From Zarea fungicola (taxonomy: Eukaryota > Ascomycota > Sordariomycetes > Hypocreales > Cordycipitaceae), in contig FWCC01000043.1 of the NCBI GenBank assembly GCA_900169235.1, positions 124,001-188,000 on the forward strand: DNA of 64,000 bases, given 5' to 3'. Position 1 is the stretch's first letter. Every line of letters starts with the position of its first letter. This document shows positions 4,471-59,263 of the stretch, one piece after another. Below the pieces are notes generated by a model. It saw nothing but the letters and a program-made list of their open reading frames with translations. It was not told the DNA's origin and did no database searches. The translations under genes were made by a program, and so were the position numbers.

Positions 4471-4493
4471 ATTATTTTTTCTATCAAAATTTT

Positions 4494-4580
4494 GTATATA
4501 TGAGTGGTATATGAGTGGGTATATATGAGTGGTGTATATATGAGTGGTGTATGAGTGGTGTATATAAGAGTGGTGGATAG
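4494..4580. repeat. Degenerate tandem repeat in the 3' flank of the NlpC gene
   Basis: Six to seven imperfect copies of a 12-17 base unit resembling TATATATGAGTGGTG begin about 25 bases after the stop codon. The array probably lies in the 3' untranslated region. Confidence 0.8.
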
Positions 4581-30685: not shown

Positions 30686-32422
30686 TTTGGATCAAGTTTC
30701 CTCAATGCACGTTGCTGCTGATGCCACTGAATTCACTTTAACAATGAATTACTTGCTGAGAGGAAGGGTGTCTTGCGAAAGCTACGCCTGTTAAAGTCGA
30801 CAGTAGCCTGCGTTTGTCGTCTTGGCCACGGGCTGGCAGCCCCTCCACCAACCGAACAAGGCAAGTACCACCTTGCGCGAAACCACTGCTCTTTGCGATT
30901 TGGTAGCAACTCCAAAAAACGGTCGCTATTCTGCTCTGGTCACTACTGATACATTCAGTAGTGGCAGTACATTCCTCCCTAACCCTCCGATTCCGTGTAT
31001 AACACATCGGCGCTCGTAAGACCAGTGTCACAACGGGCACGAGACATCAGCATCAAAAAAAAAAGGCTATCGGGAGAGCAGCAGGAAGCAAATTATAATA
31101 GGATTGCCGTCTACAATTGTCAACAAGGACCTTACTGCATGCGATAGCGGCATATTGACAGGTACCTAGCCAACCGGTTCCGTAATACATCATTTTCAGC
31201 ACAGCCACTGCTCCCTTCATTCATAGAGCGCCCGTGATTAACTCAATATTCTTCGTACCGTTCACAAAATTTCGCATCTGGTTTTTATGGCTTGAGGCGC
31301 CATGTTGGCGGCCTGATGCCTGCCTCCCGATTCAGAATGCTATGCACCCATCAAACGAACGCCACTACCAGATGATGGAAGAATAGAGGATATTTGCAAC
31401 TTGGGCTGAGTGACTACCTAAGTTTTTAGCTAGGGGCGAGACAGATATTTTATAAATGGGGGACAAGACGAAGATATACTGCTGCTTTTCGTCAACAGGC
31501 AATGGAATAAGGGGGACAAATATTCAAAATAGTATAAGCCATTCGGAGAACTGAGAAAAGGAATATGAAGTCTTCTTAACGGCAGTTTCGGAATCCAATT
31601 TATAAGCAACCGCTACTTGAACGTTGGCCAGAAGTCATCTCAGCCGTCCGTGCCACTTCTGGATATGGTGCCATCCATTGAAGCCTGCGTGGTACAAGCC
31701 AGCCACCTACATTAACACAGCGATCAAAATAGTAGCGAACCAAGTGGACACTTTATGCGGTCCAGCGGCGACCTCTCCTGCATATATAGAAGCGATCGAG
31801 AATCGCCGTGGAAGAGAATCCGTGGAGCCGGGGCAAATTGGGCATTCATTTCAGCCGTCCACTTCGTTGCCATCTCATTAGCCAGCCGATCGCTCAAGCT
31901 AACACGTTTGCTGTCAGATCCCGGAGGTCGCCGCTCAGACCGAGAGCCTGGATTCTGGCAGTAGCGTCGGCAAATTCGATTCAACATCGCTTGATCGATA
32001 TATTCTCCCCAGACACAGTAGGCCGGTTTTAGGATACCTGGAAGTTCAGCCAATACAGTCCCCGAATTTGGACATGTTGCAATGATTTGATGACAATGAA
32101 CGACGGTCCAAAGATAACGAGCGGCGCTCTCCGCGTGAGACACCAATCGAGTGGGGCACGTGATGCTATTTTGGCGGGCCATTGAATAACATTGAGTCAA
32201 GCTTCCTCAACAAGCCAAAGTACTTTGAGCATTTCAACCTCTATACATCTCCTAATACCGTTTCAATATATTTCTCCGTTCCTCAAGAATCAATCCGGCG
32301 CTACAATTGTCCCATTGGAAAGGAAAGACTAACGAGTACGCCGACTCCACACCACGCTCAAACCCCAGCTAGACAGATCTCATCCCCACCAATCAACTGC
32401 CATTGGTGATATCATCTTGAAA
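30686..32422. other. Region without a supported gene; ISN1 upstream
   Basis: The only sizeable open frame is a 158-codon minus-strand frame at 31724-32200 with no recognisable domain, treated as doubtful. The last 200 bases are the ISN1 promoter and leader. Confidence 0.5.
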
Positions 32423-34034
32423 ATGACGACTCGTTATCGCGTGGAATGTATGTATTCGGCCTCATTTTCACAATGTTCCTCGGGGGGTGTCCAATTTAGT
32501 CCATTGCCCCTCTGCGCGAGGTCCATCAGCTGCTAACTTTTGGTCAGATGCACTGAAGACTCACCGACGCGACCAATTCATCGGTATGTGCCATTATTCA
32601 AGTCTTATAAAATACTTGTGGAAATTAACTGATGTTTACAGAATGGGTCAAGGGTCTGCTGGCGGTGCCGTTTGTGCTCTACTCCCAGCCAACCGGTATC
32701 GTGGGGGACGGCACGAGCATCGCCAAAATGTCCGAGGAAGCCCATCGTCGCTACGCCGAAATTATGCGCGACGTGGAGATGATGATTGACGATCATAGTG
32801 AGAACTTCGCTTCTTCGCCCGTTTTTCTGAAACTGATGTTTGGTAGTTGCGCGCCAGAACCAAAACTCGCCATTTCCGTCCAAGCTAGGGATGCTGGTTC
32901 CCACAGCGGGACCGTTCTTCACGAGACTGCCGCTCGAGGCCGCATTCAAGTACCAAGACCGCAAACGCTACATTTCCTGTCGCCGTTATGTTGCGCCTTC
33001 ATTCAACGATGTACGACTTGTTCTCAACTCGGCTCAAATCATGGCCGTGACCAACGGCACCCTGCAGCTCGCGACGTTTGATGGTGACGTGACGCTATAC
33101 GACGACGGACAGAGCTTGGAGCCAACCAGTCCAATTGTACCACGCCTTATGAGTACGCTACCTCCAAACATCTCTAGAGAAGCCATGTTGACACGAAATA
33201 GATCTCTTGCGCAATAATATCAAAATCGGCATCGTCACAGCTGCCGGCTACACATCCGCCGACGGCTACTATGGTCGCCTTCACGGCCTGCTAGACACCA
33301 TTGCCGAGTCTACAGAGCTGGACCCAGTACAGAAGCAAAACCTCGTCATCATGGGTGGTGAGGCCAATTACCTTTTTGAATACTCGCAATCTTCGCCGCA
33401 CCGACTAGCGCCGGTACCGCGCTCGCAGTGGTTGACACCAGAAATGGCATCCTGGTCCGATTCTGACATTACAGCCCTTCTCGATGTCGCCGAGTCTGCC
33501 CTCCGCGACTGCATTCGCTCGATGAACTTGCCCGCCAAGCTCATCCGCAAGGATCGTGCCGTCGGTATCATCCCAGACCCGCCAGAGATCCAAATCGCGC
33601 GAGAGAGCCTGGAAGAAACCGTTCTCGTCGTCCAGCGCATCCTGGAGCTCAGCAGCCTGGGCTCACAGGCTCAAGCCGCCGCGGCTGCCAGCAAAATTGG
33701 TGGACCAGGCAGCGCCAGTCCTAAGCGTGGCGTGCCATTCTGTGCATTCAACGGCGGCCGCGACGTCTTTGTTGATATCGGTGACAAGTCTTGGGGTGTC
33801 GCAGTCTGCCAGCAGTGGTTTGGCCGTCGCGATGCCGCGTCGTCGGGAGCCACCGCGGCCAGCACGGCTATCAAAGGCGAGAACACGCTGCACGTGGGTG
33901 ACCAATTCCTTAGTGCCGGCAGCAACGACTTTAAAGCGCGAAGCGTTGGCACCACGGCCTGGATTGCAAGCCCGTCAGAGACAGTCGACTTGCTAGATGA
34001 GTTGGCAGACCTGACGCAAAAGAAGCTTGCGTAA
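32423..34034 (+). CDS. ISN1: IMP-specific 5'-nucleotidase
   Basis: Five exons (32423-32447, 32548-32583, 32642-32797, 32847-33152, 33202-34034) give 451 residues, the normal ISN1 length. The start is set by MTTRYRVEYALKTHRRDQFI, built from two very short exons. The HAD-like catalytic motif is FDGDVTLYDD; downstream family motifs are IVTAAGYT, VIMGGEANYLFEY, RESLEETVLVVQ, GGRDVFVDIGDKSWGV and LHVGDQFLSAGSNDFKAR. The enzyme dephosphorylates IMP to inosine in the cytosol and helps balance the purine pool. One paralogue-specific oddity is an Ala/Gly/Ser insertion between VQRILEL and PFCAFNGG (residues about 340-360). A core gene set among accessory ones. Confidence 0.95.
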
Positions 34035-34077
34035 TACGTCCATTGATGTGCGGTAGGCGGCAACTGAAATCATTCAA

Positions 34078-34088
34078 CGAGAGTATAT
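34078..34088 (+). promoter_or_regulatory. TATA-like element upstream of the CBM39-like gene
   Basis: AGAGTATATAATG lies about 230 bases before the start codon, in the short spacer after ISN1. It is a reasonable TATA box for the downstream gene, but the assignment is positional only. Confidence 0.3.
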
Positions 34089-34316
34089 AATGTTCAAAGT
34101 TCAATACGGAAGGATTTAGTAAATGAAACTTGGGGCCATGGCGTATTAGTTTGGTTGCTACTACTACTGTGAAATGGGGTGTAAACCCTAAGTGTTAAGC
34201 CTCGCGCATGAATTGCATCATAAACTCTCCCACAGGATAAATGAACAGCCTAAACGCAAAACACCAAAACATTCATAGAGGTGCAGTTAGGAAATAAAAC
34301 ATACTGTATTCTCAGG

Positions 34317-34685
34317 ATGAAGCTGTCTACAATTTTCCTCACGGCCTTGGCCACCGTCGGCTACAGCTACACGATCCCCCTGGCGACTGTTAAGGTACGC
34401 TTTCCCAAGGGCATGAGCATCTCCATCCCTCACGATCCGGGCCTGTCGGCTGTCACCTTTCACATCAGAATCAACAAAAAATTTGACGGTATCGAGGATG
34501 GCCAAATCACGGCCAACATAAAGAAGCCTATTGACGGCCTCTGGTTTTTCAAGAGCAAATATACGCCAGTTCGGGAAGGGGATATTATGTATTACTGGAT
34601 CCTTGCAGTCCACGAGGGTAGGACCTATAATCTCATTGATCAATCCTTTGTCTTTACACATTATCAAGATGGCGAATTGAATTAA
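34317..34685 (+). CDS. Small secreted protein made of one CBM39-like (beta-1,3-glucan recognition) domain
   Basis: An intronless gene for 122 residues. Residues 1-18 form a signal peptide (MKLSTIFLTALATVGYSY); the frame also has a Met 12 codons upstream, but the signal peptide fixes the start. The mature chain is one domain with the spacing of CBM39, the N-terminal domain of insect beta-glucan recognition proteins (GNBP/betaGRP): FPKG at 29-32, SIP at 36-38, FH at 48-49, N53, G-x-E-x-G at 58-62, KP at 70-71, G-x-W at 74-76, GD at 88-89, YYW at 92-94, Y104 and DG at 118-119. It has no Cys, also typical. In insects the domain binds triple-helical beta-1,3-glucan and triggers immunity. A fungal secreted copy could coat or mask wall glucan or compete with the host sensor; this role is inference. 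It lies 282 bases after ISN1 on the same strand. Confidence 0.75.
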   Translation: MKLSTIFLTALATVGYSYTIPLATVKVRFPKGMSISIPHDPGLSAVTFHIRINKKFDGIEDGQITANIKKPIDGLWFFKSKYTPVREGDIMYYWILAVHEGRTYNLIDQSFVFTHYQDGELN

Positions 34686-35163
34686 AAGCGCCCAGAGGTC
34701 CGGATTGGGTGAGTGGCAGCGATGACCACGGGGTTGGGTGGCCTAGGAAACGCGTGGAAGACTGAAATTTAATGTTTTACCAATTTTTATCACTTTTATT
34801 ACAAGATAATAAGCTTCCAGGTAGTATAATGGAAAGCTTAGGGTGGTCGGACAATTCAGCGACGAGGCCAGTAGCAGTTGCCAGCCATAACATGAATTAA
34901 AGATGCGCCGCAGACTTATTCACGTGTTTTCCTTATACGCATTGATTTGAAGTAAGCGACAAAATAAATTATATTTCTTCATCATATACTGAAACAAACT
35001 TTTTAATACATTGTACAATCTCTCATAAGACATCAAGGGTAAGTAGTCGACAAGCCGCATTGCCCGCAAAATCAATCTCGGGTCGACAAAAGTTTGGGAA
35101 AAATGAAAAGGGAAAATAAAATAAAATAAAATAAATAAATGCATTTGCCACTGAAACACTCAC
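34686..35163. other. Convergent spacer with AAAT microsatellite
   Basis: AT-rich DNA between the convergent CBM39-like and kinase-like genes. An (AAAT)n tract occupies about 35113-35140. No gene seen. Confidence 0.65.
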
Positions 35164-35955
35164 TCAAGAGCGAGATTCCATTTCTTTTTCGTGCTTCAAC
35201 AAAAAGTTGTACAGCAGCTCAATCCCCAACAAGTCATTCTCAAACTCCGACGTCGTCGTGCCCGCAGGTACCGGCCCATGCTTGGCCGGCAAACTGTACC
35301 CGCGAAACGCGCACGACTCAAAGTTGGCAATGACGAGCAGCGGACCAAATGTCTTGAACATGATGGTGTCCGCAGTGATGTCGTTGTGCACCAGGTTCAT
35401 GGCGTGCAGGTGCTCGACGCCGGCGCGGATCTGCGCGATGCACTTGTCCGCGTCGACGGAGAAGCCGTGCCTGACGCGGTCCGCGAGCGTCTCCGTGCAC
35501 TGTTCAAAGCAAAGACCCGTGATCACTTCATCGCCGCCGGAACCGACGACGTCGCAGCCGTGGAAGCGGATGATGTTGGGGTGCGGGGTGCGCATCAGGG
35601 CCCGGCAGACGCGGGCCTCGTGGAGCAGGTGCTGGCTGAGCGCCGGCGAGCCGTCAAAGTCGACGAGTCGCGGCGTTTTCACATACAGTCCCGCCTTGTC
35701 CCTGTTGGGACACACGATGAGGCCGGGCTGCAGGACCGGCCAGATGGAGGCGGAATCGATGGCCCGCAACAGGCACGGTTCCACGACGGGGAGCTCCTGC
35801 GGCGAGGCGTAGCGACCGGGGACGCGCGCCGTGAAATATTCGGATTTGCTTTTAAATATGACGTGTGTGTAGAGGAACATGGTCACCCCAGAGATTACGC
35901 CCCAGCGTTCCTTCATTGAGTGGAACTCGATATTTTCAGCGCGGGGAGTGGCCAT
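35164..35955 (-). CDS. Protein kinase-like protein lacking the DFG aspartate (predicted pseudokinase)
   Basis: An intronless minus-strand gene of 263 residues from ATG 35955; an in-frame ATG at 36021 would add 22. The chain follows the kinase fold: K93 in LYVKTPRL (ATP lysine), E113 in LLHEARV (helix C), a hinge around GLCFEQCTE, the catalytic loop H190-N191-D192 in VHNDITADTIM, and the position of DFG reading A-N211-F-E. The Asp that binds magnesium is thus Asn. HND instead of HRD, and a following ESC, match the fungal family of small orphan kinases whose usual motif is HNDINP...IIDFDSC. No glycine-rich loop is clear. The predicted product binds nucleotide weakly or not at all and may be a scaffold. 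It ends at residue 263 without a full C-lobe, so it is short for the fold. Confidence 0.7.
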   Translation of the reverse strand: MATPRAENIEFHSMKERWGVISGVTMFLYTHVIFKSKSEYFTARVPGRYASPQELPVVEPCLLRAIDSASIWPVLQPGLIVCPNRDKAGLYVKTPRLVDFDGSPALSQHLLHEARVCRALMRTPHPNIIRFHGCDVVGSGGDEVITGLCFEQCTETLADRVRHGFSVDADKCIAQIRAGVEHLHAMNLVHNDITADTIMFKTFGPLLVIANFESCAFRGYSLPAKHGPVPAGTTTSEFENDLLGIELLYNFLLKHEKEMESRS

Positions 35956-38435
35956 GAGACGTGTGTATATGTGTATGTGTTTGTGTAATACAACCTTTTG
36001 GCCGGGGCGTTTGTGATACACGACCGTTTGTTTGGAATCGTGTTAATTTCCACTCAGATAACAAAAGGGAAAAAGGAGCCGAAGAAAAGGAATTGGGAGA
36101 GAAGGAGGGGTATGCCCTTTTTGTCTGTTCACCCACATACTGTAGCTTGGATCGGCCATGTGTCCCCTCCAATTCTAGACCGATAAGAAAGCATGGAGTC
36201 CAACATTTCCCTTAGCCAGAGGGGAAAAAGTGACATGACCTGGGTCAGCATATGTGACTGGGGCCTATCGTAAGTAGTTTGGAGAGGAGTTTTGAAGTGG
36301 ATGGGTATGGCCTTACAGGTCTATTACATGCTGTTTTCTCAGACATGCAGAAAAAGAAATTCTATCCGAAGGGGAAAAGCAGGCATTTGCTTTTGAACCG
36401 ATGCAAATAACATAAAATTGAAATAAAAAGCAAAACTACCCGAGACAGCTTGTTGGACATTAGGAGGTCCGGCCAGGACAAAAAAGCAAAAACGAGGAGA
36501 CAAGAATCAAGGGAAATGCCTGATGACAGCTACGCCTGACAGACTAATCGATCGCGGGCTCGGAAACTACCGAGCCGCTAGAACTTGAAGGGCAAAGAGA
36601 GGTAACAAAGAGGAGCTAGAGGAAACGTAAAAAGGAAAACTCGTTTCGGGCGACTCTCGTCCACGAAAAACCAGGCCCGCACTTTCTGCCAGGTAGATGA
36701 CTGTGTCTAGGACACTACCTGTATCCCTGTACTGACAACGTCGGCCAAGGCTCTGTATGCTTCGCGTGTTGCAATAGGCTGGATGCGAATGACGATAGCG
36801 GTGGCTGCATCGTGGACGCCGGTGAGTGGAACCCGCGTTGCCCGACATTGATGAAGTCGTTGGAGCGTCTGTGCCTGAGGCGGAACGTTCCCGTCCACAA
36901 ATTGCAATGGCAGTACAATGGTGATGAGACCGATGAGTTTTGACGGTACTTGAGCTCGGAGAGCAATATCGACGGGACATTTGTTGTCCGTTGCGACGGC
37001 GGCCTCGCTTGCATCCCGGACACTGTCCACACGTGCATCAACTTCTGCAAGCTCCATGTCGGCCTTGTTTTCGACCACTTGCTTGATTTCAGACTGTCTC
37101 GCCTGCATGATTGCCTAGCTGTTTGGCCAGCATAGGTTTCCCCGGTTGAACAATACTAAGGTTGGTCCGTAGCGAGGTCTACAATCGGCGGATCAGACCC
37201 AAGGCCGCTTCCCGGTTGCTTGTCTTTGAATGCATTAAGATCCTTCTTGCATGGCCGATCAGCGACATGATTTGCAGAGCTGTTTCAACAGTAACGATGC
37301 ACAAGAGAAGGAAATTGCGTCTCTATTGCTACAGTCTTGTAGTTTTACCAATCTGAAAAAAGCACTCCCCTGGCGCAGCTCTGAAAAAGCCGTCCTCGCA
37401 CGTAATTATCCCACAAAAAGCTGTCTGTGTACTTGAACAATCTGAAAAGGCTGTCTATTTTTGGTTTTTTGGCTCTGAAAAGGCTGTCTTGCCACTTTAA
37501 CCATCTCGAAAAAACACTCTACACACCCGACCACATTCATGACCTTCCGCATACCAAGTCCACATTACATAGGTTATTATTGATAATAGAATCTATTTTC
37601 TTTTTCACATTTTTGTCTTCTTGAATTTGTACTCGATATAATTCCTGGGTTAACCGTTTGTGGTGTGCGTGCGCGCCACCGCCTTGAAGACCATCTAGCC
37701 GAGGCTGTCTGTGTGGAAGACTTTGATCTCGGCTATGGATACCATAAAATCGTGGTATCACAGCATGGTTGGGCCAGAGGCAGATACTGCAACGCCATGG
37801 CCGTCATTGATGTCTGGAATATGCTCTGTGAGTGGAGGGACCTGCTCCATTTCAACGATGTAGACATCCCGGTTGACTTTATTTTCAACTGGCCGTGCAG
37901 CAATAGACCGGTCCCGCGCCATGTATTCTATATTTAGCTTGGCATTCAACTACTCGTTCTGTCGGGTCGGGTCATGGTGAGATCCATTCGCGCAACAGGG
38001 TTGTCGCAGTACAACATGACATAGGCAAAACCAAATGCTCGGCGACTACAGCTTTAAATTAATTAAATTGTTTTAATTTCATTCAGCCTTAAACTAATTC
38101 CAATCTGTTTTCATTTTTGAGAAGTACTCGTTTGTCTGCAGCATTCGCTCCTCCTTCGTGACCGTTTGTAAATCCAACTTCAGGCAAACAACCGCTCGCG
38201 ACCCTTGTGCATGCCTAATTTTTAAGCTACGAGTAAGTCTTGGGCATTTCTATAGATACAGAATTTTACGAAGGTCATAAACAAGCATGCACGCATGTGT
38301 TGGGGAGGCGCCGGCTGGCGGCGGTTGGCATCTGCCAGCCCGCGCAAGACTCACAAACACAACATGCATCGTAAAAACACATAAGCTTCACAGCATTTCA
38401 CAGTCAACATCGCACTCAACTGCAGCACCAAAACC
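35956..38435. other. Region without a firmly supported gene
   Basis: The best candidate is a 133-codon minus-strand frame at 36707-37108, which begins as a charged helix (MQARQSEIKQVVENKADMEL) and ends in hydrophobic beta-like sequence. It overlaps a second minus-strand frame and has no recognised domain. The rest is AT-rich with short frames only. A degenerate tandem repeat is listed separately. Confidence 0.5.
37351..37522. repeat. Degenerate 28-35 base tandem repeat with CTGAAAAAGCYGTC core
   Basis: About six copies of a core similar to CTGAAAAAGCTGTCT occur at roughly regular spacing (near 37353, 37381, 37413, 37442, 37475 and 37505). Sequences between the cores differ. Function unknown. 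Confidence 0.65.
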
Positions 38436-44535: not shown

Positions 44536-46485
44536 GGCGTTTGTCCTGGCACTGGGCCTTCAAACGTCATGAGCGAGAGGCCTAATAAAAGAATTGAATT
44601 GATCTAGGGCCAGTCCAGATGACTTTGATGGCGGCCGTTGGAAATGTGCTTTTGCTCTGTCGTCTTGTGGGGTCTCCTGGAATATAATAGGGACTTGGGG
44701 GGCTGAAAGGAGGGTCATCCTTGACGGCTGGTGCCTCACCTCCGCTAGATCATAACTTAAAGGCAATGGCTATAACGGCTGATGGTGGGTCGGCTTCCTC
44801 TCCCCTTCCCAAGGACTGTTAAAGACGTTAGCGCTCAGACTCGAGTTGACCTTAATGAAGCCTTGCGGAGTACTCGCAGCGGACCATAGTTCATACACTT
44901 GTTGGTGTCGTTGGAGCCGCTAATACGGCCATTTACTTAAAAGTTCCAATGCCACATTACATCCGAGTGCCATTGTCCATTGTTGGTCTGGTTGCAAGCC
45001 ACAAATCATCCCAAGCAGCTCAATGTGAAACCGGGGGACGGGTTGGGGCTCCTAGCGCCGGATGATGCACAAATGTCGCCACGGCGCCGCAGAAAATCAC
45101 GCAAGAAGGAACAAAGAAGCTCCCAACGCCCTCGCGATTGTAATTAAGGCTCTATTCAAGACATCGCACCGACTCTCTTTGAAAAGTATTTTTGGTTTTG
45201 TGTACAAACTTGTAGAAAGTGTTGATTAGTGATACGAGAGTCCTACCTGTTTGTGGCGGCTGACGAAGGCTCAGTCTTATTAGGCCATCTGGTAGCCGGT
45301 GTAATTGTCACGCAGAACAGGAANNNNNNNNNNNNNNNNNNNNNNNNNNNNNNNNNNNNNNNNNNATCACACCCCGCGCAACAGTAATTCTCCGTCCCCA
45401 CACGGCATGCTAGTGGATACGAACTGAGGCTTCGGATGCTGCTATAACAGGTGCTACCGTCGGGTCGGCGAACGGCTTCTTACTTGCATAGTAACTCCGA
45501 GATTTGAATGTCTATTGAAAGGGGTCGGTGAAGCGCTGCTTTGAGACATGGATAAGGAGTAGTAACTCCATAACGGTATTGAATGGAGATGATTGCAGAC
45601 ACTGAAAGAAGTAGGTTTGAATACAAGCTCCCTGTTCCTAGACTACTACATATAGCCAGGAGGCTGCAAGTGGAAGCCGGCAGTTCTGTCGGAGCCAGAT
45701 TCCACATCACACAACGGAGGGGTAAATTCCTTGATTGGCGGATTTGAAATGGCCAAACTGTTTTCCATTACATGTACAGCTGTCATTTGTTCGGGAATAC
45801 CATCCTTTATAATCTCCCGCAGAACCTCTCGGTTTGAATGAACAAACTTCTCACCGAGCGTGCCCTCTATGGACAGCCGCCATGGTAGGACTGAACTAGT
45901 TCTGCAAAGCCAAGGAAGCCAAGTGATTCAGCTTCATCGGAGCTGCCTGTCGCCTTGGCGCCGATTCGACCACGTGTATTTCAATCAATACTAGGCTGCA
46001 ACCTGCAGAGCACGGCTGCAAGTTGTGGTATCAATCTCAAAAATCGCGCTTATCAACAAATCAATTTCGTTGGGTCAGTTTAACAAGTCGCAATGCGACC
46101 CCGGATCACACTTGTCGACAATGTGCCTAGTTCGCACTGGTGGCGCGGACCAATTACCCTGAACGGTTGACCAGAACAATGCTCCGCGCCCGAATCCGCA
46201 GGTTGCGAGATATCAAATACAAGTCGGTCGTATCCTACCTGTTAGTTAATACAGTCTACCTAAATCTGGACTTTGTCCCGTTGTGGATACTGCAGGGGTA
46301 ATAAGGGGCGAACAGGATTGGAGCAGAAGTCATGATGGACATGAACTGTTGCTTGGCCTACCTACGCCATCAAGACAAAGCGGGGGCTTTGTCAACCATA
46401 TATAGGCCAGGAGCAACGGCCGATACTGTCCGCCTTCGGCCACTGGTACGAGCGCCGCGTTCACTAATCGTTGCTTTGACACACA
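44536..46485. other. Long region without a supported gene, containing the assembly gap
   Basis: Short frames only. It includes the run of Ns, so a gene piece could be hidden. The last 100 bases are promoter and leader of the SnoaL-like gene, with a TATATAGG at about 46399. Confidence 0.5.
45324..45365. other. Assembly gap, 42 Ns
   Basis: A run of undetermined bases. Its true length is unknown. Confidence 0.99.
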
Positions 46486-47120
46486 ATGCTGATCAGCACT
46501 GCTTTTCTCGTTGGTCTCGCCGGCCTCACTGGCTCCTGGGCCGCTGCCGATTCTTCTTACTCCGACTCATCCATTCGACAGATTCCCATTGATCCATTCG
46601 ACCTCGCAACCGCCTTTGGAGAATCAGGTGTTGCCAGCAATCCTTCCGACGTGGAAGCAATCCGCAATGCCTTGGCCCATTATCCCTTGGCTATTGACGG
46701 CAAGAACTTTGCCGCCCTTGATCTTGTATTCACGCCCAACGCAGTGACAAACTACTCTGCCCCCCTAAACATCCTGACACCGTTGTCCGCGATTAAATCA
46801 GGGCTGCAGGCCAGTCTTGCACCCGTTACGACTCAGCACACCTATGGCACGCAGGTCATTGATGTTACGTCTTCAAAATCGGCCTCGTCTGTAACCTATT
46901 TCGTCGCAACTCATTTCGGGAAAGGCGTCCACGTTGGCAAGATTGCTACTGCGTACGGCCAGTATCAGGACACATTGGTCAAGCAATCAGGGAAATGGAG
47001 AATTAGTCGCCGAAATTTGGTATACATGGTAAGAGCTGAGATGTTTTACTTCCGCAAGTCTCCGTTGCTAATAACGATCTGTAGGGTCCCATTATTGGCG
47101 ACCTAACCATCTTTTCGTAG
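46486..47120 (+). CDS. Secreted SnoaL-like (NTF2-fold) protein
   Basis: Two exons (46486-47028, 47085-47120) give 192 residues; the intron starts GTAAGA and contains the branch-like GCTAATAAC. Residues 1-20 are a signal peptide (MLISTAFLVGLAGLTGSWAA). From about residue 50 the chain follows the SnoaL/NTF2-like cone fold: DVEAIRNALAHYPLAIDGKNFAALDLVFTPNAV is the opening helix and strand, YFVATHFGKG and YGQYQDTLVKQSGKWRISRRNLVY are the late strands. Family members include polyketide cyclases, dehydratases and non-enzymatic carriers. A secreted fungal version has no assigned substrate. It is convergent with the dioxygenase 250 bases away, and both are secreted, but co-function is only a suggestion. 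Confidence 0.82.
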
Positions 47121-47376
47121 GGGTGAAGCGCACACGGAATCACGGTCGCTGGCCGTCCTGTGACCAAGGAACTTATACAGGGCCTAGCGAAATTGCTGAA
47201 ACTGATAACTGTGGATATGCCGCAATCACGACTAGAACCGCTGGGGTTGGGTCGCTGGTTGTTTGTAAACGCACTGTTGGACGAGACTGGAGATTGGGCA
47301 AAGACATAGAACTCTATTAGTACATGTGCGCCTGAAGCAATAGCAAGTAATTATTTCGGCGTCATAGCATAGCCCG

Positions 47377-48490
47377 TCAGTGGCACACAGCACTCGTATT
47401 CAAAGCGGGATGGTACGTCGCCGCCGGTGTGACAGCCTCACTGTGCGTGACATTGATCCCAAAGGTTATCCAGGCCAGAATGCCATCCTCCAAAGTGCTG
47501 CCAAGACGCATATACTTTGCCTGTGGATCACCACCTGCATTCAGGTCACCCTTGAGTATGAAGTCTTCTGAATTTGTAGTGACAGGCTGCGTATTTGTCG
47601 AATATGGCCAGTATGCATTTGTCGAATTGATGAGATCCTGGTCAAAGTATATCTGCGAAACATACGCCGCTTCTGTGTCAAAGAGTGTCCCATTGGCGAG
47701 CGGTTGGGCATTTAGATGCGCCATGACATGAATGTGGACGGTACGGTTAGTGTAATGGCCGGGAAAGAGGGTCGAGAATTGTACGACTCCATCGACATCT
47801 GTTTTTTGTACGCCTCGGAGCCAGGTATTATAGACATTGGACGGGTCCGCCGCCCCGTTGCCATTAGTAGGGTCAATAACGCCGCCATAAACCCCTGTTG
47901 AGTTGCAATCTATAGTAAACAAAAAGGTTAACGATTTCGCTGTTGAATTGTGGGAACCTGGGTGCTTACTCCAAATGTCAATAAATGCCGCTTCCACAGG
48001 CTTACATGTAGACGCGTCGATGAACTGTATGTCAAGCTCTAGAGGAATTCCTTCCTGTTCTTCAACGAGATCAGATCGTACGTACTCCCCCTCGACGTCT
48101 AATTATTGGTCAGTCCATGTATCAGTAAAGCATAGAGGCACACGACTCACAATATGGCCCAACCATCTCTTCTGGAGACATTGCACATGAAGAGTTACCT
48201 CCGAATAGTGTGGCTGGATCTTGCTCAACAGTGTACTCTGCGCGAGACTCTTCTCCCCGCATCGCAAGGAGGGCACGTTTCTGTTTTAAGCCACGAGCAG
48301 CGAGAGAACGGCGGTGTATTGCCCTCTCAATCACACCATTGGCGTTTAGCTTTGATGAACAATGTGACAGATTGGCCGAGCTTCCTTTAAAGTAGCTCTG
48401 GCGAGCGGTGAGCTCCGCCGTATGGTCCTCGCCCGGATGAGCAGCGACAAAAGAGCCGAATATAGGTAAGAGGAATTTCAAAAGCTTCAT
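47377..48490 (-). CDS. Secreted intradiol ring-cleavage dioxygenase
   Basis: Three exons on the minus strand (48490-48151, 48098-47970, 47909-47377) give 333 residues. MKLLKFLLPIFGSFVAA is the signal peptide. After a linker (ELTARQSYFKGSSANLSHC) comes the protocatechuate-3,4-dioxygenase-like fold: GPYYVEGEYVRSDL, DIWNCNSTGVYGGV across the second splice, TWLRGVQKTD..G, then TLFPGHYTNRTVHIHV. Tyr in GPYY, Tyr in GHY and the two His of HIH are the expected iron ligands. Such extracellular fungal enzymes cleave catechols and related aromatics between the hydroxyls. Substrate is unknown; host phenolics or melanin/quinone intermediates are possible. Several NxS/T sites are present, consistent with secretion. 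Confidence 0.9.
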
Positions 48491-50802
48491 TATGATGAAG
48501 GCAGTTGTTAGTATAATAATGTGTTCTAGAATAGACCGCGTGATTGTTGAAATTCGCAACTCCACTGGTGCTTTGCGTACATGGCCAAGGCATTGAATCT
48601 TTAAATAAGCGTATCTAGTACGTTAATCGTGTTGACTTAGAGTTTGAAGTGATGACGGCCGTTGACGCTCAATCCGTCAGCAAACGTACGTGCCGCGCGT
48701 AGGCCACACGTGGTCGACGTCATGCGCCACTCCCTTGGCTGTTGGCATTTGATTACTATGCCATTTTCAGTTACCGCTACGCAGAGTATATTGGCCAAAG
48801 CCGTTACAGAGTCGATGGAGGAAGGCCTCGTACATACATTGCCCTTACTTACTCATCCTCCACTCCAAAGAACTTTGATTGTGAGTTGGCTGCATCTGGG
48901 AAAGAATTGCCCCAGGAAAATGTGAATGACCGATGTTTAATCCCCATGTTTCACGGTTAGATTCCATTTAATCTGTTTACTCCAAAGTTCCATAGCCTGC
49001 GCGGCTTCTTGCAATTGACTTATCCTCTGGTGCTTGCTCTAAGAATGATGAGGCTACGATGATTACTTTTACAACTCAAATCATAGAAAACTTCCTGGAA
49101 GTTCGCTTTCAAAAGCCCAAGTTTAACCGCTGAATAATCAGTATGGGCAGAAGTTGAAGGAAAAAACAAACCACGTCTTGCCGAGACAATATTCTCAGTA
49201 CGTTTCCGATGGATGCGCTAACCTTTTGGTCCGTGTCACGGCCGATACGGCGCCGGCATTTGTACTCGAGCGTCCGAGCTACTTTACGCGTTACAAGAGC
49301 CTGCGCCGCACGTCGAGAGCGTATTCCTTGCTGTTTACTAGTGATGCCAGCATGGGCGCCAACCCAAAGCCGTCAGACAGGCAGAGAAAGCCCCTTGCCG
49401 TTGCCTGCCTCGATTGAGCTATTTCATTTCCCAATATGATGAGAGAAGACCGAATCATTGTGCCCCATCTTCTAAAGCCACATGCCTATTGTCAGCCACT
49501 GCTGCAGCCCGGCTCCGGCTCCGCGCATCTCAGCAGATCGGAACTCAATTTCAGCAGGCTGACGTATTATTTTGGACGCGGCTCTTCCTCTCCATCCGCT
49601 TTCTTCTCGTGCAGTAGCCAGAATTAGCTGCATCAGCTTCCAAAGAGAAGCCGACGCCGCTCTCGGCCCGGTCGGACATGAAGTACACGTTCAGAAAGTT
49701 ATTTTGCCTTCCTGAAAGCCGATTTAGCCGTTCGCCGGGTTTAAAACTCGCTTTGACCATCCCCACCGCTGCCCCACCGCCACTGGCCGGAAACTGATCC
49801 GATCTTGACCTCGTCGATCTGTTTCGCTTCTCGCACCGTGGGTTGCATTCTTGGCTGCTTCAGCTTTGCCTCCGTCCTTAGTCTGGCCGAGTACCGCTCG
49901 ACTCTACGACTATCAAGACCTGTGCCACTAAATAAACACGAAACTTCCATTGCTTCCCACGCAACCCTGCGTGGTTTCCTGCCGAGGCTGGCCTACGCTT
50001 CAGATTCCTCTATCCCAGTTAAATTACGTATGACAGCTGTGTCGAAGAAAAGTCCGAGCGGCGCAATCCCTTCCGCCAAACTTTTCCATCCACGCGTCAA
50101 CCCACATATTGCTACACAGTCGGACAAGGTTTCTATGCCCATTTTTATTCATGGGTCTTTATTTGTGAATGACTCCTGGGATGATCGATGTCTGGTGTAA
50201 AGTGCCGCCTTTTGAAGCTGAGGTTGGCCGTGGCATATTAGGTACAATTTCTCGATTCACTAGCCTTTCCCCGCTTTGCGTTCTGTTTTAAGGGGGAATA
50301 GTCGAAACTCATTGGAGTGCTGACATCACGGTCAAAGTTTGCGAGTAATTGGACGGATAGACAGTCCTCTCCCGTCGCTACGGAGGGTCCCCTGCCCAAG
50401 AACTGCGGCGGAAATGCTACGCTCGAAATTAGAGCAGTGATGCAATTAGTCGACATAATATGCCATAAATTATCGGTAAAGGGGTACTATGGCCCAGTCA
50501 CCTCGCGGCGGCCATAGCGTCAATGCCATCAATCGGCGTCTCCTCGTCAGATGAACCACTCAGGCAGTACTGTTAGTATTGCAGCTTGGCAAAGCTATAT
50601 ATAATATGCTCACTCTCTCAGTTTTCGCCTCCTTCTTTTTGAACATGCAGCGTGAATGTATTCCACATTCCTTCTCTTCGCTTCGGCTTTCCGTGTTCCA
50701 GTCTTGCCGTCCTAAATACATCCTCGGTCACTCTGTTGTCTAGGCTTATTGTGCTGACACTGGCGGCGGCCCCCATCTTAGCAGTACTCTCCAGACACAA
50801 CC
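48491..50802. other. Region without a supported gene; upstream of the synthetase
   Basis: Short frames on both strands, the longest (49805-50200) without domain or signal peptide. TATATATAAT near 50596-50606 is a likely core promoter element for the synthetase gene, about 200 bases before its start. Confidence 0.55.
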
Positions 50803-53800
50803 ATGGCTGATGGTAAAAGAGAAATCGTCGAGCATTCGGTCAATTGCCTACCGGCCACCTCTCGCCGTGCCGACTCGACACCGCCGTCACACCCGTCGGT
50901 ATCGTCTGAAGACCTGGCTCTCTACCCCTACGAATCAGCTACCAAAGAGCGTACGCTCATCGATATACTCAACGCCTCCATTGCTGCCTATCCTGACGCT
51001 CTAGCTATTGATAATGGCTCGGTGACGCTAACTTACACGGAGCTCGCTGGGCGTATTGCGGGACTGGTCGACCAACTCCGCCAATCTGGCATCGGAGCGT
51101 GCGACAGAGTTGGTATTCGCGTCACATCTGGCACAACAGAGCTGTACATTGGAATTTTGGCTATCCTCAGCGCCGGCGCTACCTACGTTCCGGTCGATGT
51201 GGACGACCCAGACGAACGCGCGGGCCTCATCTGGCGAGAAGCAGGCGCCTGCGCTGTTCTTACGGATAACAACACCATCACGCTTCACGAAACAAAGCTA
51301 AAGGGAGTAATGTCTCCTAGAAAATCGACACCAGACCATGATGCCTGGATCATCTTCACTTCAGGCTCAACCGGCAAGCCCAAAGGTGTCGCTGTCACCC
51401 ACCGCAGCGCCGCTGCCTTTGTTGACGCCGAGTCCCGACTCTTTGTTCCAAAGAAGCCATTGGCTCCTGGTGATCGGGTTCTCGCTGGTCTTTCTGTCGC
51501 CTTTGATGCTTCGTGTGAAGAAATGTGGCTGGCCTGGCGCCACGGTGCGTGTTTAGTCCCGGTACCACGAAGTCTTATCAAGGCTGGCGCGGAGCTCGGT
51601 ACCTTTATTACATCGCAGCATATTTCTGTCATATCGACCGTCCCGACTCTTGCCGCCCTCTGGCCAACCGAGGCACTCAAACGCCTCCGTCTCTTGATCC
51701 TCGGCGGCGAGGCCTGCTCCTCCGAGCTGGCCAACCGCCTTGCCAGCGCCGTTGAGACTGTATGGAATACCTATGGTCCTACCGAGGCAACTGTTGTCTC
51801 CTGTGGTGCTCCCCTCCTGGCCGAGCCAAACGCGACTGTCCGAATCGGTCTCCCCCTTGCTGGCTGGCGCCTCGCCGTGGTTGGAGCTGATGGCCACCCT
51901 GTGTGCTGGGGTGAGGAGGGTGAGCTCATTATTGGTGGTATTGGCATGGCTCGCTATCTAGACCTTGAAAAGGACAGAGTCAAGTTTAAGCCCTCTCTAG
52001 CTTTTGGCGGCGAACGTGCTTATTACAGTGGCGATTTAGTTCGTGCTGAGAAAGAGGGACTCATCTTTATTGGCCGTAATGATGAGCAGGTGAAGCTAGG
52101 TGGCCGCCGCATTGAGCTTGGAGAGATTGACGCTGCTATAATGACTCTAACAGGTGTCAAGGCAGCCGCCAGCGCCATCCAGTGCAGCGACACGGGCAAC
52201 CAGGTGCTTGTTGGCTACATTGTGCGTGATGGCAAAGTGTTGTCCAAATTTGACAGAGAGCAGCTCAAGCACTTGTTGCCACCTACTCTTATCCCTATGC
52301 TGGTTACCGTCGATAGCATTCCCGTCCGCACATCGGGTAAAGTTGACCGCAAAGCCCTTCCTTGGCCTCCTCCTCGGTCGTCTACAGAAGACTTGGCTGA
52401 AGGCACCACCATGGCTTGGGTCTCTGACCAGTGGCGTGCGGTGATTGGCGCCTCTGGTACATCTCCAGAGTCAAACTTTTTCGAGCTTGGTGGCACCAGT
52501 CTCGCTGCCGCACAGATTGTCTCTCAATTACGCCAACATTGTCATATGCTTTCCGTTGTCGATGTCTATGAAAATCCCACACTGGGCGCTATGACGAAGC
52601 GCATTGACGAGCTGCTCGGTACAACAATTACAGAGCGGGAAATCAAGACCGATCCTCGCTGGGCCGTCCTTTTTCAGAGCGTCGTCATTATTGGAGCATT
52701 TCTACTTCAAGGTCTCCGGGAAATGGCAATTCTGCCCGTGTTTCAGAAAATATTTGAGAACGAGCTTGGTCCTGATTCTTGGGCCTCACATCATGCCCTC
52801 CCTTGGTCTGCTGTCGTCGTGTACTTTCTCGTCTTTTTCACCACTCTCGGTCGTTTGCTGACAACAGTCATGATCGTGTGGCCCTTGACTCTGGGTATTC
52901 AGCCGGGAACGTACCGCCGCGCTGGTTGGACGCATTTGCGTTTATGGGCGGCGGAGCGCTTTGTCGATCTCGGTCAAATCCAGTCAATTGCCGGTACACA
53001 CTGGGCTCGCCATTATGCCTGGGCACTCGGCTGTCACATTGGCCGTGACGTGCAACTGCATGCTCTGCCGCCGGTGACTGGTCTGGGTAGTTTCGGCGAC
53101 GGTGCATCCATTGAGACCGAAGTTGATCTAGCCGGTTGGTGGATCGACGGCGATCTGGTGCACATTGGTACTATCACAGTCGGGAAGCATGCTAGAGTCG
53201 GTGCGCGCTGCGTGCTGATGCCCGATGCTGTCGTCAAGGCACACTCTGTTGTTGAACCGGGTATTGCTGTACAAGGCATCTCCAGACACTCTGTCTCATC
53301 CTTGCCGTCCAGACACGAATCTATTCACGATGACGACTTCCAACCAACCAGCGGAGGCGCTGGTATTGGAATTCTCTACACTCTTGCACTTTTCTTCATG
53401 GATGTGTTGCCTCTTCTTGTTTTTGCACCAATCTGGGGTCTTACGCCAATCTTGGTCAAAGACTACAACAACTTCAAGGAAATGTGCATTGGCCTCATTG
53501 TCATGACGGCGCCTGGAGCAATCCTCGGTGGGTGTCTCCGCGCAGCGGCGATGATCATTGTCGTCCGCCTTGCAAACCGCTCCATTCGGCCTGGTACGTT
53601 TTCATGGAACAGCACCAATCATTTTTGTGCCTGGCTTGTCCACTCTCTCATGGCGGAAGCACGCGACTCCATGTATCCCATCTTCTCCAGCCTGTTTACG
53701 CCAACCTGGCTAAGGTTGCTTGGTGCCAAGATGGGTTACAACATAGAAGCCTCTACGGTGGTCACACTACCGTCGCTTCTCACCGTCCATGACGATGCGT

Positions 53801-54816
53801 TTCTCGCTGACCACGCGCTCGCAGCGCCGTACGAGCTTTCGCACGGCAAAATGCGCCTTGGTACAGTGACTGTTGGTGCCAAGTCATTCCTGGGCAACTT
53901 TGCTATTGCCAGTCCAGATACCAGGGTGCCAGATGAGTCACTCGTCGGAGTTCTGGGTTCAACTCCTCAAGGTCTTGAGGAAAACGAGCAGCAGACTGGA
54001 TCTTCATGGCTTGGGCGTCCACCTATGCTGCTGCCCCGTAAAATTGAGGGCGATATTGACGAAACTCGGACATTTACACCCACGACAAAACTCGTCGTCA
54101 TGCGTACCCTTATTGAATCATGCCGCATGGTTCCTGTCATTCTAAGTACTTTGATCCCTCTTATTGCGGACTTGACGGTATATTGGACAATGTGGAGGTT
54201 TGGTTTTGGTTTTGCCATTCTCGCTGCTGGAGCACTCATGATCGGTGTCGCAATTGTCACTGCTCTCATTTACATTGCTGTCAAGTGCGTTGTAACACCC
54301 AACATCAAGGCCGGCGCCACTCATCCTCTCTGGAGCTCTTTTGTCTGGCGTAAGGAACTGGTCGATTGCTTCTTTTACTCTATGACTTTACCGCTTATGC
54401 TTCGTTACTTTCTTGGTACTCCAGTTGTGCCAGCATTCTTTCGTGGGCTTGGAGCTGACATTGGTACGGGTACGTGGATGGAGGCTGCTGCGCTTCCCGA
54501 GGCAAATCTCTGCCACCTTGGGAACGGCGCCACACTGAACAGGGGCAGCGTGGTGCAGTCGCACCTGTTCCACGACCGTCTCATGAGGCTTGACAAAATT
54601 CACCTCGAGTGCGGTGCCACAATAGGGCCTCACAGTATTGCACTTCCAGGCACAGTACTAGGCGCAGGAACAACAGTATATCCGATGTCTGTTGTTATGC
54701 GCGGAGAACATCTTCCAGGCAGCACACGCTGGGCAGGTAACCCAATATGCCCTTGGAGTGGTGAAGAGAAAGAGGGTTCCCGCAGTTCAAGCTGGGATTC
54801 ACCAGACGGGGTCTAG
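50803..54816 (+). CDS. NRPS-like synthetase of epsilon-poly-L-lysine synthetase (Pls) architecture
   Basis: An intronless frame of 1337 residues. Residues 30-520 are an adenylation domain: FTSGSTGKPKG near 185, FDASCEEMW near 234, YGPTEAT near 324, GRNDEQVKLGGRRIELGEI near 424 and TSGKVDRKALP near 520. A carrier domain follows with FFELGGTS, the phosphopantetheine Ser being S566. The remainder is membrane-bound: three pairs of helices (about 620-715, 855-925, 1105-1165) alternate with three left-handed beta-helix, acetyltransferase-like segments (for example VGARCVLMPDAVVKAHS and IGPHSIALPGTVLGAGTT). This A-T-TM2-C1-TM2-C2-TM2-C3 order is that of Streptomyces Pls and of the Epichloe festucae VibA enzyme, which make epsilon-poly-L-lysine. 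Substrate here is not proven; a related diamino acid is possible. No partner biosynthetic gene is adjacent. Confidence 0.9.
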   Translation: MADGKREIVEHSVNCLPATSRRADSTPPSHPSVSSEDLALYPYESATKERTLIDILNASIAAYPDALAIDNGSVTLTYTELAGRIAGLVDQLRQSGIGACDRVGIRVTSGTTELYIGILAILSAGATYVPVDVDDPDERAGLIWREAGACAVLTDNNTITLHETKLKGVMSPRKSTPDHDAWIIFTSGSTGKPKGVAVTHRSAAAFVDAESRLFVPKKPLAPGDRVLAGLSVAFDASCEEMWLAWRHGACLVPVPRSLIKAGAELGTFITSQHISVISTVPTLAALWPTEALKRLRLLILGGEACSSELANRLASAVETVWNTYGPTEATVVSCGAPLLAEPNATVRIGLPLAGWRLAVVGADGHPVCWGEEGELIIGGIGMARYLDLEKDRVKFKPSLAFGGERAYYSGDLVRAEKEGLIFIGRNDEQVKLGGRRIELGEIDAAIMTLTGVKAAASAIQCSDTGNQVLVGYIVRDGKVLSKFDREQLKHLLPPTLIPMLVTVDSIPVRTSGKVDRKALPWPPPRSSTEDLAEGTTMAWVSDQWRAVIGASGTSPESNFFELGGTSLAAAQIVSQLRQHCHMLSVVDVYENPTLGAMTKRIDELLGTTITEREIKTDPRWAVLFQSVVIIGAFLLQGLREMAILPVFQKIFENELGPDSWASHHALPWSAVVVYFLVFFTTLGRLLTTVMIVWPLTLGIQPGTYRRAGWTHLRLWAAERFVDLGQIQSIAGTHWARHYAWALGCHIGRDVQLHALPPVTGLGSFGDGASIETEVDLAGWWIDGDLVHIGTITVGKHARVGARCVLMPDAVVKAHSVVEPGIAVQGISRHSVSSLPSRHESIHDDDFQPTSGGAGIGILYTLALFFMDVLPLLVFAPIWGLTPILVKDYNNFKEMCIGLIVMTAPGAILGGCLRAAAMIIVVRLANRSIRPGTFSWNSTNHFCAWLVHSLMAEARDSMYPIFSSLFTPTWLRLLGAKMGYNIEASTVVTLPSLLTVHDDAFLADHALAAPYELSHGKMRLGTVTVGAKSFLGNFAIASPDTRVPDESLVGVLGSTPQGLEENEQQTGSSWLGRPPMLLPRKIEGDIDETRTFTPTTKLVVMRTLIESCRMVPVILSTLIPLIADLTVYWTMWRFGFGFAILAAGALMIGVAIVTALIYIAVKCVVTPNIKAGATHPLWSSFVWRKELVDCFFYSMTLPLMLRYFLGTPVVPAFFRGLGADIGTGTWMEAAALPEANLCHLGNGATLNRGSVVQSHLFHDRLMRLDKIHLECGATIGPHSIALPGTVLGAGTTVYPMSVVMRGEHLPGSTRWAGNPICPWSGEEKEGSRSSSWDSPDGV

Positions 54817-56257
54817 GACGATGCTGCCTTGCCCGAGCCGCGGTATACTTTTTGGGAAATGAATATTTGAGCATATTTATTGCTTGTGTAAATAAATTTA
54901 AATGATATTATTTCAACAATCCGATACCAACTAGCTCCTCTTGGTCGAAACGCATTCCTACTCTTCTGCCTCATTTCGAGTCACTGCGTCTTGCTTCTTG
55001 CTCCAAAATTGACCGGCCAAAGCACTGATTGACACATGGTGGGGCTCTGGTTGATCCGGATAGCAACGGTTCGATTCTGTTTAGACGGCAGTGCCATTTA
55101 CCACGGCGAAGATCTCCTGACTGTGCCTTAGCGCGTCGTGGGGAAGCATCGGCTACGATTTCCGTTTCTATTCGGATTGTGGATCGATACGACCTCTGCT
55201 CCCTATTGAACGACATACGGTGGGGCAGAGATATGCAGCCTGAGAATGTGAAATGCGAACCGTCCTCGCTTCAATGGACCCTGTTGCAGGGTTCCCAGCA
55301 ACGCCAGTCAGCAACGCCACTTTGGGAACAAGTCATTCACAAGTCACAACAAGGATGCTTCCTGTACCGCACACGCGTTCGCGACACGTCACAAGGCATG
55401 AGAATTTGGAGGATAGAATTTTGAGACACTGCATCTGGATCAAGCGCCCACAGGCCCCGGGTCTCAGACAAGCCAGCTGGCCAAACCATTTGTACCTTTG
55501 CTAGGCTCGAATTCAACCTCGTTTACAAATAAGCGTACATTGCTTTTGCCTTTTGAAACAAAATAGGTCTAGAGACGCCGCCAGGGATGCCCAGCTAGTG
55601 GCGGAAAACGCTAAAAGTAACACTAAAAACGAACGATAAGGCAGGCTCAGTTTAGTTATAGGCTAAGTGTTGCGCCAAAAAGTGGCCAGCTACAACCAAG
55701 GCTGGCTTATTATCCCATATCTGCTTGACACTAAGTCAGGCTGTATACATGTGAATCTCGTACCTCGGTTTCTTGGCCCGTTTTCAGCAGTTTGGGCCAA
55801 CTGTACGGAATTCAGCCTACCGGCAGTTTAGTCACTGTATTTTAAAAGACAGTGATAATGTCTGTGCTGTACACGTCAAAGGAAATACGTGGTAATTTGA
55901 AAGGATTAATAATCTCTTTGTAGGAGGCATAGCGGCGTGCATGGTCTGTAGGAGGCGAGGGTATCTATTTATAAATATAACCAGTAAATTATCAACAATC
56001 AGAATCTTATTAGCTAGTTTAAAGTATCTTTCAGGTAGCCGCCACATGTCCTGTTTTGCGTGATTGTCTCACGGTTTTCGTACTACGACGCTTTCAGCAT
56101 TTTGGCGAAGCCCACCATGATTACTCTGCGGTCCACCGCCAGAACCGTTACGAGGCATGAAACTCGTTCCAGTACGAATGTCTTTCATCAGACTTTCAGA
56201 CACTTTCCCCGCTTTTTGTTTTAACCGTTTAAATTTAAAACGATGTGATTCCCTCTG
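54817..56257. other. Region without a supported gene; decayed-repeat-like stretch
   Basis: Short frames only. 55550-56050 is rich in TAG/CTA and TA steps and may be decayed transposon, but no protein could be traced. Confidence 0.5.
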
Positions 56258-57370: not shown

Positions 57371-57942
57371 TTTAGGAATTCGTCGATTTTGTAAGAGTTG
57401 TAAGCAACTCTGGAGTTCTTTGGCGTAGCACTGTTAGCGTTTTGTATGTATATAGGCGGCGAGTACTAGCAGCGTGTTGTTTTTATATTCAGCTTGTAGT
57501 CGCTCGACCACCACCGAATCTCGATCGGAATTCGCCGTCTGTGAGATTCTGTTGATGCATGTACGATTGGCTCCCCGTCGGTCCTTGCAGAATCGCCTGA
57601 ATCAGCTATGACAGAGCTTCAAAAATTTAGCCTCTGGCCCAAGGAATTAAGCATTACGAATACACCAGTCAGCATTGGGTAAAGTGGGGCATCACACATC
57701 TCTGTCGATGTGATTGGCCGGATTTGTTCCTTCCCGATGCAGCCCGCTGCTTAGAGAATCATTATGTAAGTACATAAGGGCGCTAGTCCGGAAATGGCGA
57801 TACACCATGGGCGAAATCACCAACATGACGAAGCATTAAAGATGCCGAGCTGCCCATCATGTCTAATCAATTGCAAATGCTTGGGCAAGACAATTTGCCA
57901 GATTATTCTCAAAAATTCTAGCTTGCAGCTTCTTGTCTATAT
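57371..57942. other. Intergenic; no gene seen
   Basis: Contains the 3' end of the GT17 transcript and the promoter of the pirin gene, with TATATATG just before its start. Nothing else is seen. Confidence 0.65.
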
Positions 57943-59022: not shown

Positions 59023-59263
59023 ATATACATCTGAGGTTGTTTGGTGCTTGTAATGTATCTCAAATCGGGCTTTTAAGATATTCTAAATAGACATAATGAA
59101 TGAAATGAATGAAATGGATAATTTTATAATTCGACAACATGAATTTGTCTTGTGAGCAGTGCATTATGTGAGCTACTATTTACTCTGCCATTTGATGCAG
59201 CCTTCCACGCTTTCTTACCCCGTAAATATGCCAAACGCAATAATCCAATACTCCGCAAATAAA

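What the first reader, a model, noticed from the sequence alone, without database searches (positions are those of the whole stretch)
34317..34685. A fungal secreted protein consisting of one insect-type CBM39 glucan-recognition domain
The 104-residue mature chain reproduces the spaced landmarks of CBM39 (FPKG, SIP, FH, GxExG, KP, GxW, GD, YYW, DG) and lacks cysteines. CBM39 is known to me mainly from invertebrate beta-glucan recognition proteins, where it is the sensor of fungal wall glucan. A fungus secreting it alone suggests a decoy or cloak that occupies beta-1,3-glucan so that a host sensor cannot, possibly gained from an arthropod. The gene has no intron and sits next to accessory genes. 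Novelty cannot be confirmed here.
Basis: partly seen in the sequence, partly recalled or inferred. Interest (0 to 1): 0.9.

Follow-up and report, generated by a model that had tools for sequence, protein, structure and literature searches.

The report
Insect glucan-sensor domain secreted by fungus
A fungus carries one small gene for a probably secreted protein that is a stand-alone copy of the fungus-sensing domain of an insect immune receptor, most likely picked up from an insect, with part of its sugar-binding face changed; what the fungus uses it for is not known.

Summary

The decoy idea is unproven. Of six residues named in print as glucan contacts, both fungal proteins keep two; hymenopteran proteins mostly keep four. 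The second carrier is, as I recall, a mushroom parasite rather than an insect pathogen. The protein could be a glucan shield, a mycoparasite's wall-binding module, or a module with a changed ligand. My searches of the open paper library listed no report of it.

The parts
34317..34685 (+). Complete ORF of the single-domain CBM39 protein (P0001, 122 aa)
34317..34367 (+). Codons 1-17, signal-peptide-like leader; insect mature N-domains begin at the residue matching Tyr18
   Evidence: sequence; alignment to PDB chains; cleavage is inferred
34368..34670 (+). Codons 18-118, CBM39 domain
   Evidence: Pfam match 20-118; structure match 18-118 to 3ie4
34515..34517 (+). Asn67 at the position of Plodia contact residue Asp49, which is Asp in 81 of 82 non-fungal rows
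   Evidence: contact named in PMC7915573 (passage)
34596..34631 (+). Codons 94-105, strand and turn with contact positions: Trp94 (W76, kept), Leu96 (Y78), Gly101 (G83, kept), Arg102 (L84), Thr103 (G85), Asn105 (R87, Asn in all 37 hymenopteran rows)
   Evidence: contacts named in PMC6678557 and PMC6272582 (passages); L84 is a neighbour, not a named contact
32629..34034 (+). Context: ISN1 (IMP-specific 5'-nucleotidase), in two ORF pieces, ending 282 bp before the ATG
   Evidence: PF06437
35164..36042 (-). Context: kinase-like ORF downstream on the other strand
   Evidence: PF00069 30.8 bits (cut-off 31.7), PF07714 25.6 bits (cut-off 23.1)

Best explanation
[quoted passage not shown] An ancestor most likely took it from an insect as the leader plus first domain, without the C-terminal glucanase-like domain. 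Most likely mechanism: the secreted module coats a cell-wall polysaccharide, the fungus's own beta-glucan or a related ligand, and so hides it from, or competes with, a host recognition protein. Lacking the glucanase-like domain and with a changed face, it would not set off the cascade itself. Shown by computation: family, single-domain layout, predicted fold, narrow distribution among named fungal proteins, hymenopteran-like sequence, changed contact residues. Inferred: secretion, gene capture, binding, shielding. My separate estimates: family and layout 0.97; insect-derived 0.85; shielding role, given the rest, about 0.4.
Against: Both fungal proteins keep 2 of 6 published glucan contacts and lose 10 of 30 insect-conserved columns, so glucan binding may be lost or changed. 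A Plodia N-domain alone is reported to activate proPO (PMC7915573). Zarea fungicola is, as I recall, a mushroom parasite. AU tests do not reject grouping with ants, short Drosophila proteins, Lepidoptera or beetle-like rows (p 0.285, 0.142, 0.102, 0.113). The fungal stem is long (2.7 changes per site), and full-length receptors were fetched with an ant-containing probe, so other insect orders are poorly sampled. Without an alignment the fold prediction fails (pLDDT 42). No expression or binding data.
Confidence: 0.4

Rival explanations
1. Mycoparasite wall-binding module: captured from an insect but now used to attach to, or act with enzymes on, the glucan wall of mushroom hosts, or to shield the fungus from host glucanases. 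Insect immunity plays no part.
For: The only other named carrier is Zarea fungicola, recalled as the dry-bubble fungus treated as Lecanicillium fungicola in PMC6509529 (whole text), where a beta-1,6-glucanase matters for virulence. A glycosyl hydrolase catalytic-core ORF lies 27 kb away in the window.
Against: Lifestyle of the window's own fungus is unknown. Contact residues for beta-1,3-glucan are changed. No expression data.
Confidence: 0.25
2. Altered-ligand module: the domain no longer reads triple-helical glucan. Like the short fly proteins of the GNBP-like3 type, it may act on bacteria, or on another ligand or protein partner.
For: N-W-L-G-T-N at the six contacts against D-W-Y-G-G-R in Plodia; short fly rows that I take for GNBP-like3 (by length and clade) show D-W-T-G-D-H. 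GNBP-like3 slows bacterial growth when expressed in bacteria (PMC6224176, passages). A weevil protein with CBM39 alone exists (PMC13414360, passages).
Against: The central Trp and Gly83 are kept. The list of six contacts is taken from later papers and is probably incomplete. No functional data.
Confidence: 0.25
3. The gene is a captured relic with no present role.
For: Long stem and loss of many conserved residues; no known expression.
Against: The ORF is intact in both fungi, which differ at 8 of 120 positions, 3 of them in the leader. Core residues are kept.
Confidence: 0.08
4. Insect contamination of the assembly.
For: Animal-type domain in a draft genome.
Against: The gene is well inside a contig of at least 188 kb with fungal genes on both sides. 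No insect protein found is closer than 46%, and a 93% match is recorded for Zarea (its contig is only 1933 bases).
Confidence: 0.01

Closest known systems
N-terminal CBM39 domain of insect betaGRP/GNBP3 (PDB 3ie4, 3aqx, 3aqy, 3aqz)
   Different: There it is part of a two-domain receptor in insects; here it stands alone in a fungus with 4 of 6 named contacts changed
Hymenopteran betaGRP/GNBP proteins (ants, bees, wasps, sawfly)
   Same: Closest sequences found, up to 46%; share Asn at position 87 and seven diagnostic columns
   Different: About 460 aa; most carry a GH16 domain (PF00722) in the precomputed annotation; they keep D49 and, in 36 of 37 rows, G85
Single-domain insect CBM39 proteins: Drosophila GNBP-like3, weevil RfGNBP8
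   Same: CBM39 without the glucanase-like domain (PMC6224176, PMC13414360, passages)
   Different: Insect-encoded; different contact residues; profile score to the group I take for GNBP-like3 is 81 bits against 102.5 for Hymenoptera
FGB1 of Piriformospora indica
   Same: Secreted fungal glucan-binding lectin that suppresses glucan-triggered immunity (PMC5095285, abstract)
   Different: Described as fungal-specific, binds beta-1,6-linked glucose, acts in plants; no claim of shared ancestry
Mr-NPC2a of Metarhizium robertsii
   Same: Insect gene acquired by a hypocrealean fungus and found in very few fungi (PMC3983072, abstract and passages)
   Different: Intracellular sterol carrier with a tested role, not an immune-receptor domain
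BbEng1 glucanase of Beauveria bassiana
   Same: Works on the same problem: avoiding recognition of beta-1,3-glucan by insects (PMC10441804, passages)
   Different: An enzyme that removes glucan rather than a binding domain

Membership tests
CBM39 (PF15886) | Profile score above the curated cut-off over the whole domain | tested here: met
   90.3 bits against 25, profile positions 2-100 of 107
CBM39 (PF15886) | Immunoglobulin-like beta-sandwich as in betaGRP N-domains | tested here: met
CBM39 (PF15886) | Published glucan-contact residues kept | tested here: inconclusive
   2 of 6 kept in both fungal proteins; hymenopteran rows mostly keep 4 of 6; list of contacts is from passages of later papers
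CBM39 (PF15886) | Binds beta-1,3-glucan | not testable with these tools
   Needs purified protein
betaGRP/GNBP receptor | CBM39 followed by a GH16 glucanase-like domain | tested here: not met
   Only CBM39 found in P0001 at E up to 10; ORF ends at residue 122
Horizontally acquired insect gene | Rare in fungi, common in insects | tested here: met
   Zarea is the only fungus named among 1 hit and among the 120 listed of 129 hits; searches need shared five-residue words, and many rows are unnamed
Horizontally acquired insect gene | Nested inside one insect clade with support | tested here: inconclusive
   Sister to 37 Hymenoptera in an 84-row tree, inside them in a 73-row tree; four other groupings not rejected
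Anti-immune glucan decoy | Secreted, expressed in the host, lowers glucan-triggered response | not testable with these tools
   Only a leader-like sequence is seen

The most novel reading that the evidence does not exclude
A fungus captured the fungus-sensing domain of an insect immune receptor and turned it against that immune system: the domain is secreted without the signalling part, and its contact face is rebuilt so that it covers glucan, or jams the receptor complex, without triggering the cascade.
Probability: 0.3. Interest if true: 0.92.

Novelty: new variant of a known kind. Interest (0 to 1): 0.7.

Why it matters
CBM39 is a domain by which insects detect fungal wall glucan. A fungus that makes its own copy, probably of insect origin and with the contact face altered, is a direct, testable case of a fungal lineage reusing its hosts' sensor. 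If it masks glucan, it would be an animal-side counterpart to FGB1. If it serves a mushroom parasite, it would show an insect immune domain recruited for fungus-on-fungus attack. Either way the ligand can be measured with one purified 12-kDa protein.

Tried and rejected
Contamination: rejected (fungal neighbours on a long contig, no insect match closer than 46%, a 93% Zarea protein). Prokaryotic or viral source: 47 and 10 pattern matches, none confirmed by tblastn; this does not prove absence. Chance resemblance: rejected. Repeats: none of 18 bases or more in 32000-37500. Base composition is not decisive: GC 0.472 and GC3 0.61, against GC3 0.49-0.80 in six other ORFs of the window. NCBIfam gave nothing. 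Folding without an alignment failed. A specific donor order: not decided. Six clade questions were put: four gave p values above 0.05, one needed no test, and one (braconid wasps) did not finish. In the first tree of 103 rows the fungal pair joined P0096 and P0116 at 98/90; these two match leafcutter-ant proteins. The bootstrap had not settled.

Rows left out: the 84-row tree used 37 of the 65 proteins, and 43 of the 120 listed besides Zarea, plus P0001 and two PDB chains. The 73-row tree dropped 11 more unnamed rows (long or fragmentary). The profile comparison used groups of 37, 15, 6, 6, 6 and 4 rows, which favours the largest.

The primary structure papers PMC3190723, PMC2710696 and PMC3542770 are not held. 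CBM39 has been listed in fungi before: one basidiomycete in a survey of 103 fungi (PMC3652786, passage) and Botryosphaeria dothidea (PMC7325678, passage); those sequences were not seen. Of the seven paper searches behind my statement of no report, six showed every paper they counted (22, 1, 0, 9, 2 and 3 papers) and one showed 12 of 35.

Full report
What is there. The ORF at 34317-34685 (+) encodes 122 residues. Residues 1-17 look like a signal peptide; residues 18 to 118 are one CBM39 domain (Pfam PF15886, E 8e-26, 90.3 bits, cut-off 25). No other Pfam family appears at E up to 10. There is no cysteine and no N-glycosylation sequon; from Tyr18 the chain has 105 residues, 12.1 kDa, pI 8.2. Against a profile of the 82 non-fungal rows the protein scores 101.9 bits; the best of 1000 shuffles scores 6.5.

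Where it is. The window is 124001-188000 of contig C348 in a 43.1 Mb, 456-contig genome with one CBM39 match. Upstream on the same strand is ISN1, an IMP-specific 5'-nucleotidase, ending 282 bp before the ATG. Downstream on the other strand is a kinase-like ORF. Elsewhere in the window are matches to DNA polymerase eta, importin-type domains, PEX11, fungal rhodopsin and a fungal transcription-factor domain. This is a fungal locus, and the nearest neighbour is not an obvious accessory gene.

Who else has it. The search with P0001 gave 34 candidates and one hit: P0003 of Zarea fungicola, 120 aa, 93% identical. A profile search gave 129 hits, 120 listed. Every listed row that names an organism, other than Zarea, is a fly or a lepidopteran (orders recalled); many rows are unnamed. 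A third search, with the joined probe, gave 65 full-length hits; the 53 with names are all Hymenoptera (order recalled), the other 12 are unnamed. These searches need shared five-residue words, so distant fungal carriers could be missed, and no collection of eukaryote genomes was open to me. No relative was confirmed in prokaryote genomes or viral contigs.

Origin. The best non-fungal blastp matches by score are hymenopteran: Eciton 44%, Pogonomyrmex 43%, Ooceraea 46%, Cephus 46%. In an 84-row tree of 106 columns the fungal pair and 37 Hymenoptera lie on one side of a branch with 99/96; the Hymenoptera alone have 91/74; the fungal stem is 2.7 changes per site. In a 73-row tree without 11 long or fragmentary unnamed rows the fungal pair lies among Hymenoptera, and 26% of bootstrap trees keep the Hymenoptera whole without it. 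Profile scores are 102.5 bits for Hymenoptera and 53-89 for five other groups, which are smaller. By my cut-offs (over half of one set, under 15% of the other) seven columns are hymenopteran-like and two are like the remaining rows. Against this, AU tests do not reject grouping with ants (p 0.285), short Drosophila proteins (0.142), Lepidoptera (0.102) or beetle-like rows (0.113), and the hymenopteran rows were fetched with an ant-containing probe. I conclude: insect-derived, donor order open, Hymenoptera favoured. The partial ant protein P0125 begins at DEHG within the domain, and P0096 departs from it after SHRVVG. If these are exon ends, the donor gene had introns that the fungal ORF lacks (inference).

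The binding face. Passages I read name D49 (PMC7915573), W76 (PMC6272582) and Y78, G83, G85 and R87 (PMC6678557) as glucan contacts of betaGRP. Both fungal proteins have N, W, L, G, T, N there. Of 37 hymenopteran rows, 35 have D-W-H-G-G-N. So Asn at 87 is the hymenopteran state, while the states at 49, 78 and 85 are the fungi's own; the neighbouring position 84 is Arg for Leu. D49 is Asp in 81 of 82 non-fungal rows and G85 is Gly in 72 of 81. Of 30 columns conserved in the non-fungal rows both fungal proteins lose 10, as does one unnamed row (P0087); the median of 83 rows is 1. The two fungal proteins differ at 8 of 120 positions, 3 of them in the leader. The core and the central Trp are kept, and the face is changed in the same way in both fungi.

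What it may do. The leader implies secretion, and the missing glucanase-like domain implies no standard receptor function. I put a shield over glucan first, at modest odds. A Plodia N-domain alone is reported to activate proPO (PMC7915573), so the changed face would have to part binding from signalling. Insects too have proteins with CBM39 alone: GNBP-like3, which slows bacterial growth when expressed in bacteria (PMC6224176, passages), and RfGNBP8 (PMC13414360, passages). The short fly rows that I take for GNBP-like3 show their own changed contacts, so an altered ligand is a fair rival. Zarea fungicola is, as I recall, the dry-bubble fungus described as Lecanicillium fungicola in PMC6509529 (whole text; 44.6 Mb), so a role against mushrooms is the other main rival. 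That the window's fungus is a near relative rests on one 93% protein and a similar genome size.

Known or new. Beauveria lowers glucan recognition with a glucanase (PMC10441804, start of abstract and passages). FGB1 does so with a lectin in plants (PMC5095285, abstract). Insect-to-fungus transfer has a precedent in Mr-NPC2a (PMC3983072, abstract and passages). CBM39 has been listed for fungi in two papers (passages). Searches of the open-licence library listed no report of a secreted single-domain CBM39 protein in a fungus. I rate it a new variant of a known kind.

Noticed in passing
window 6187-6942 (+): ORF with a glycosyl hydrolase catalytic core domain (PF11790, 145.9 bits; the family includes fungal beta-1,3-glucanases as I recall), 27 kb from the CBM39 gene.
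   Followed up: partly
window 3986-4528 (+): ORF with a weak NlpC/P60 match (PF00877, 24.7 bits, cut-off 23), a peptidase family better known from bacteria.
   Followed up: no
window 46480-60816: SnoaL-like ORF, long ORF with AMP-binding, carrier and hexapeptide domains (50782-54816), GT17 glycosyltransferase, pirin and an MFS transporter close together; possibly a small metabolite cluster.
   Followed up: no
P0123 (Trichomalopsis sarcophagae, 582 aa): The start shows a second CBM39-like stretch after the first, so some wasps may carry the sensor domain in tandem before GH16.
   Followed up: no
P0058, P0063, P0076, P0077, P0085: Short fly CBM39 proteins have contact pattern D-W-T-G-D-H (four) or T-W-T-G-D-H (one) instead of D-W-Y-G-G-R: another change of the glucan face in single-domain proteins.
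   Followed up: partly
window 34287-34661 (-): An antisense ORF of 124 aa overlaps the CBM39 gene; it shows no CBM39 score and looks like chance.
   Followed up: partly
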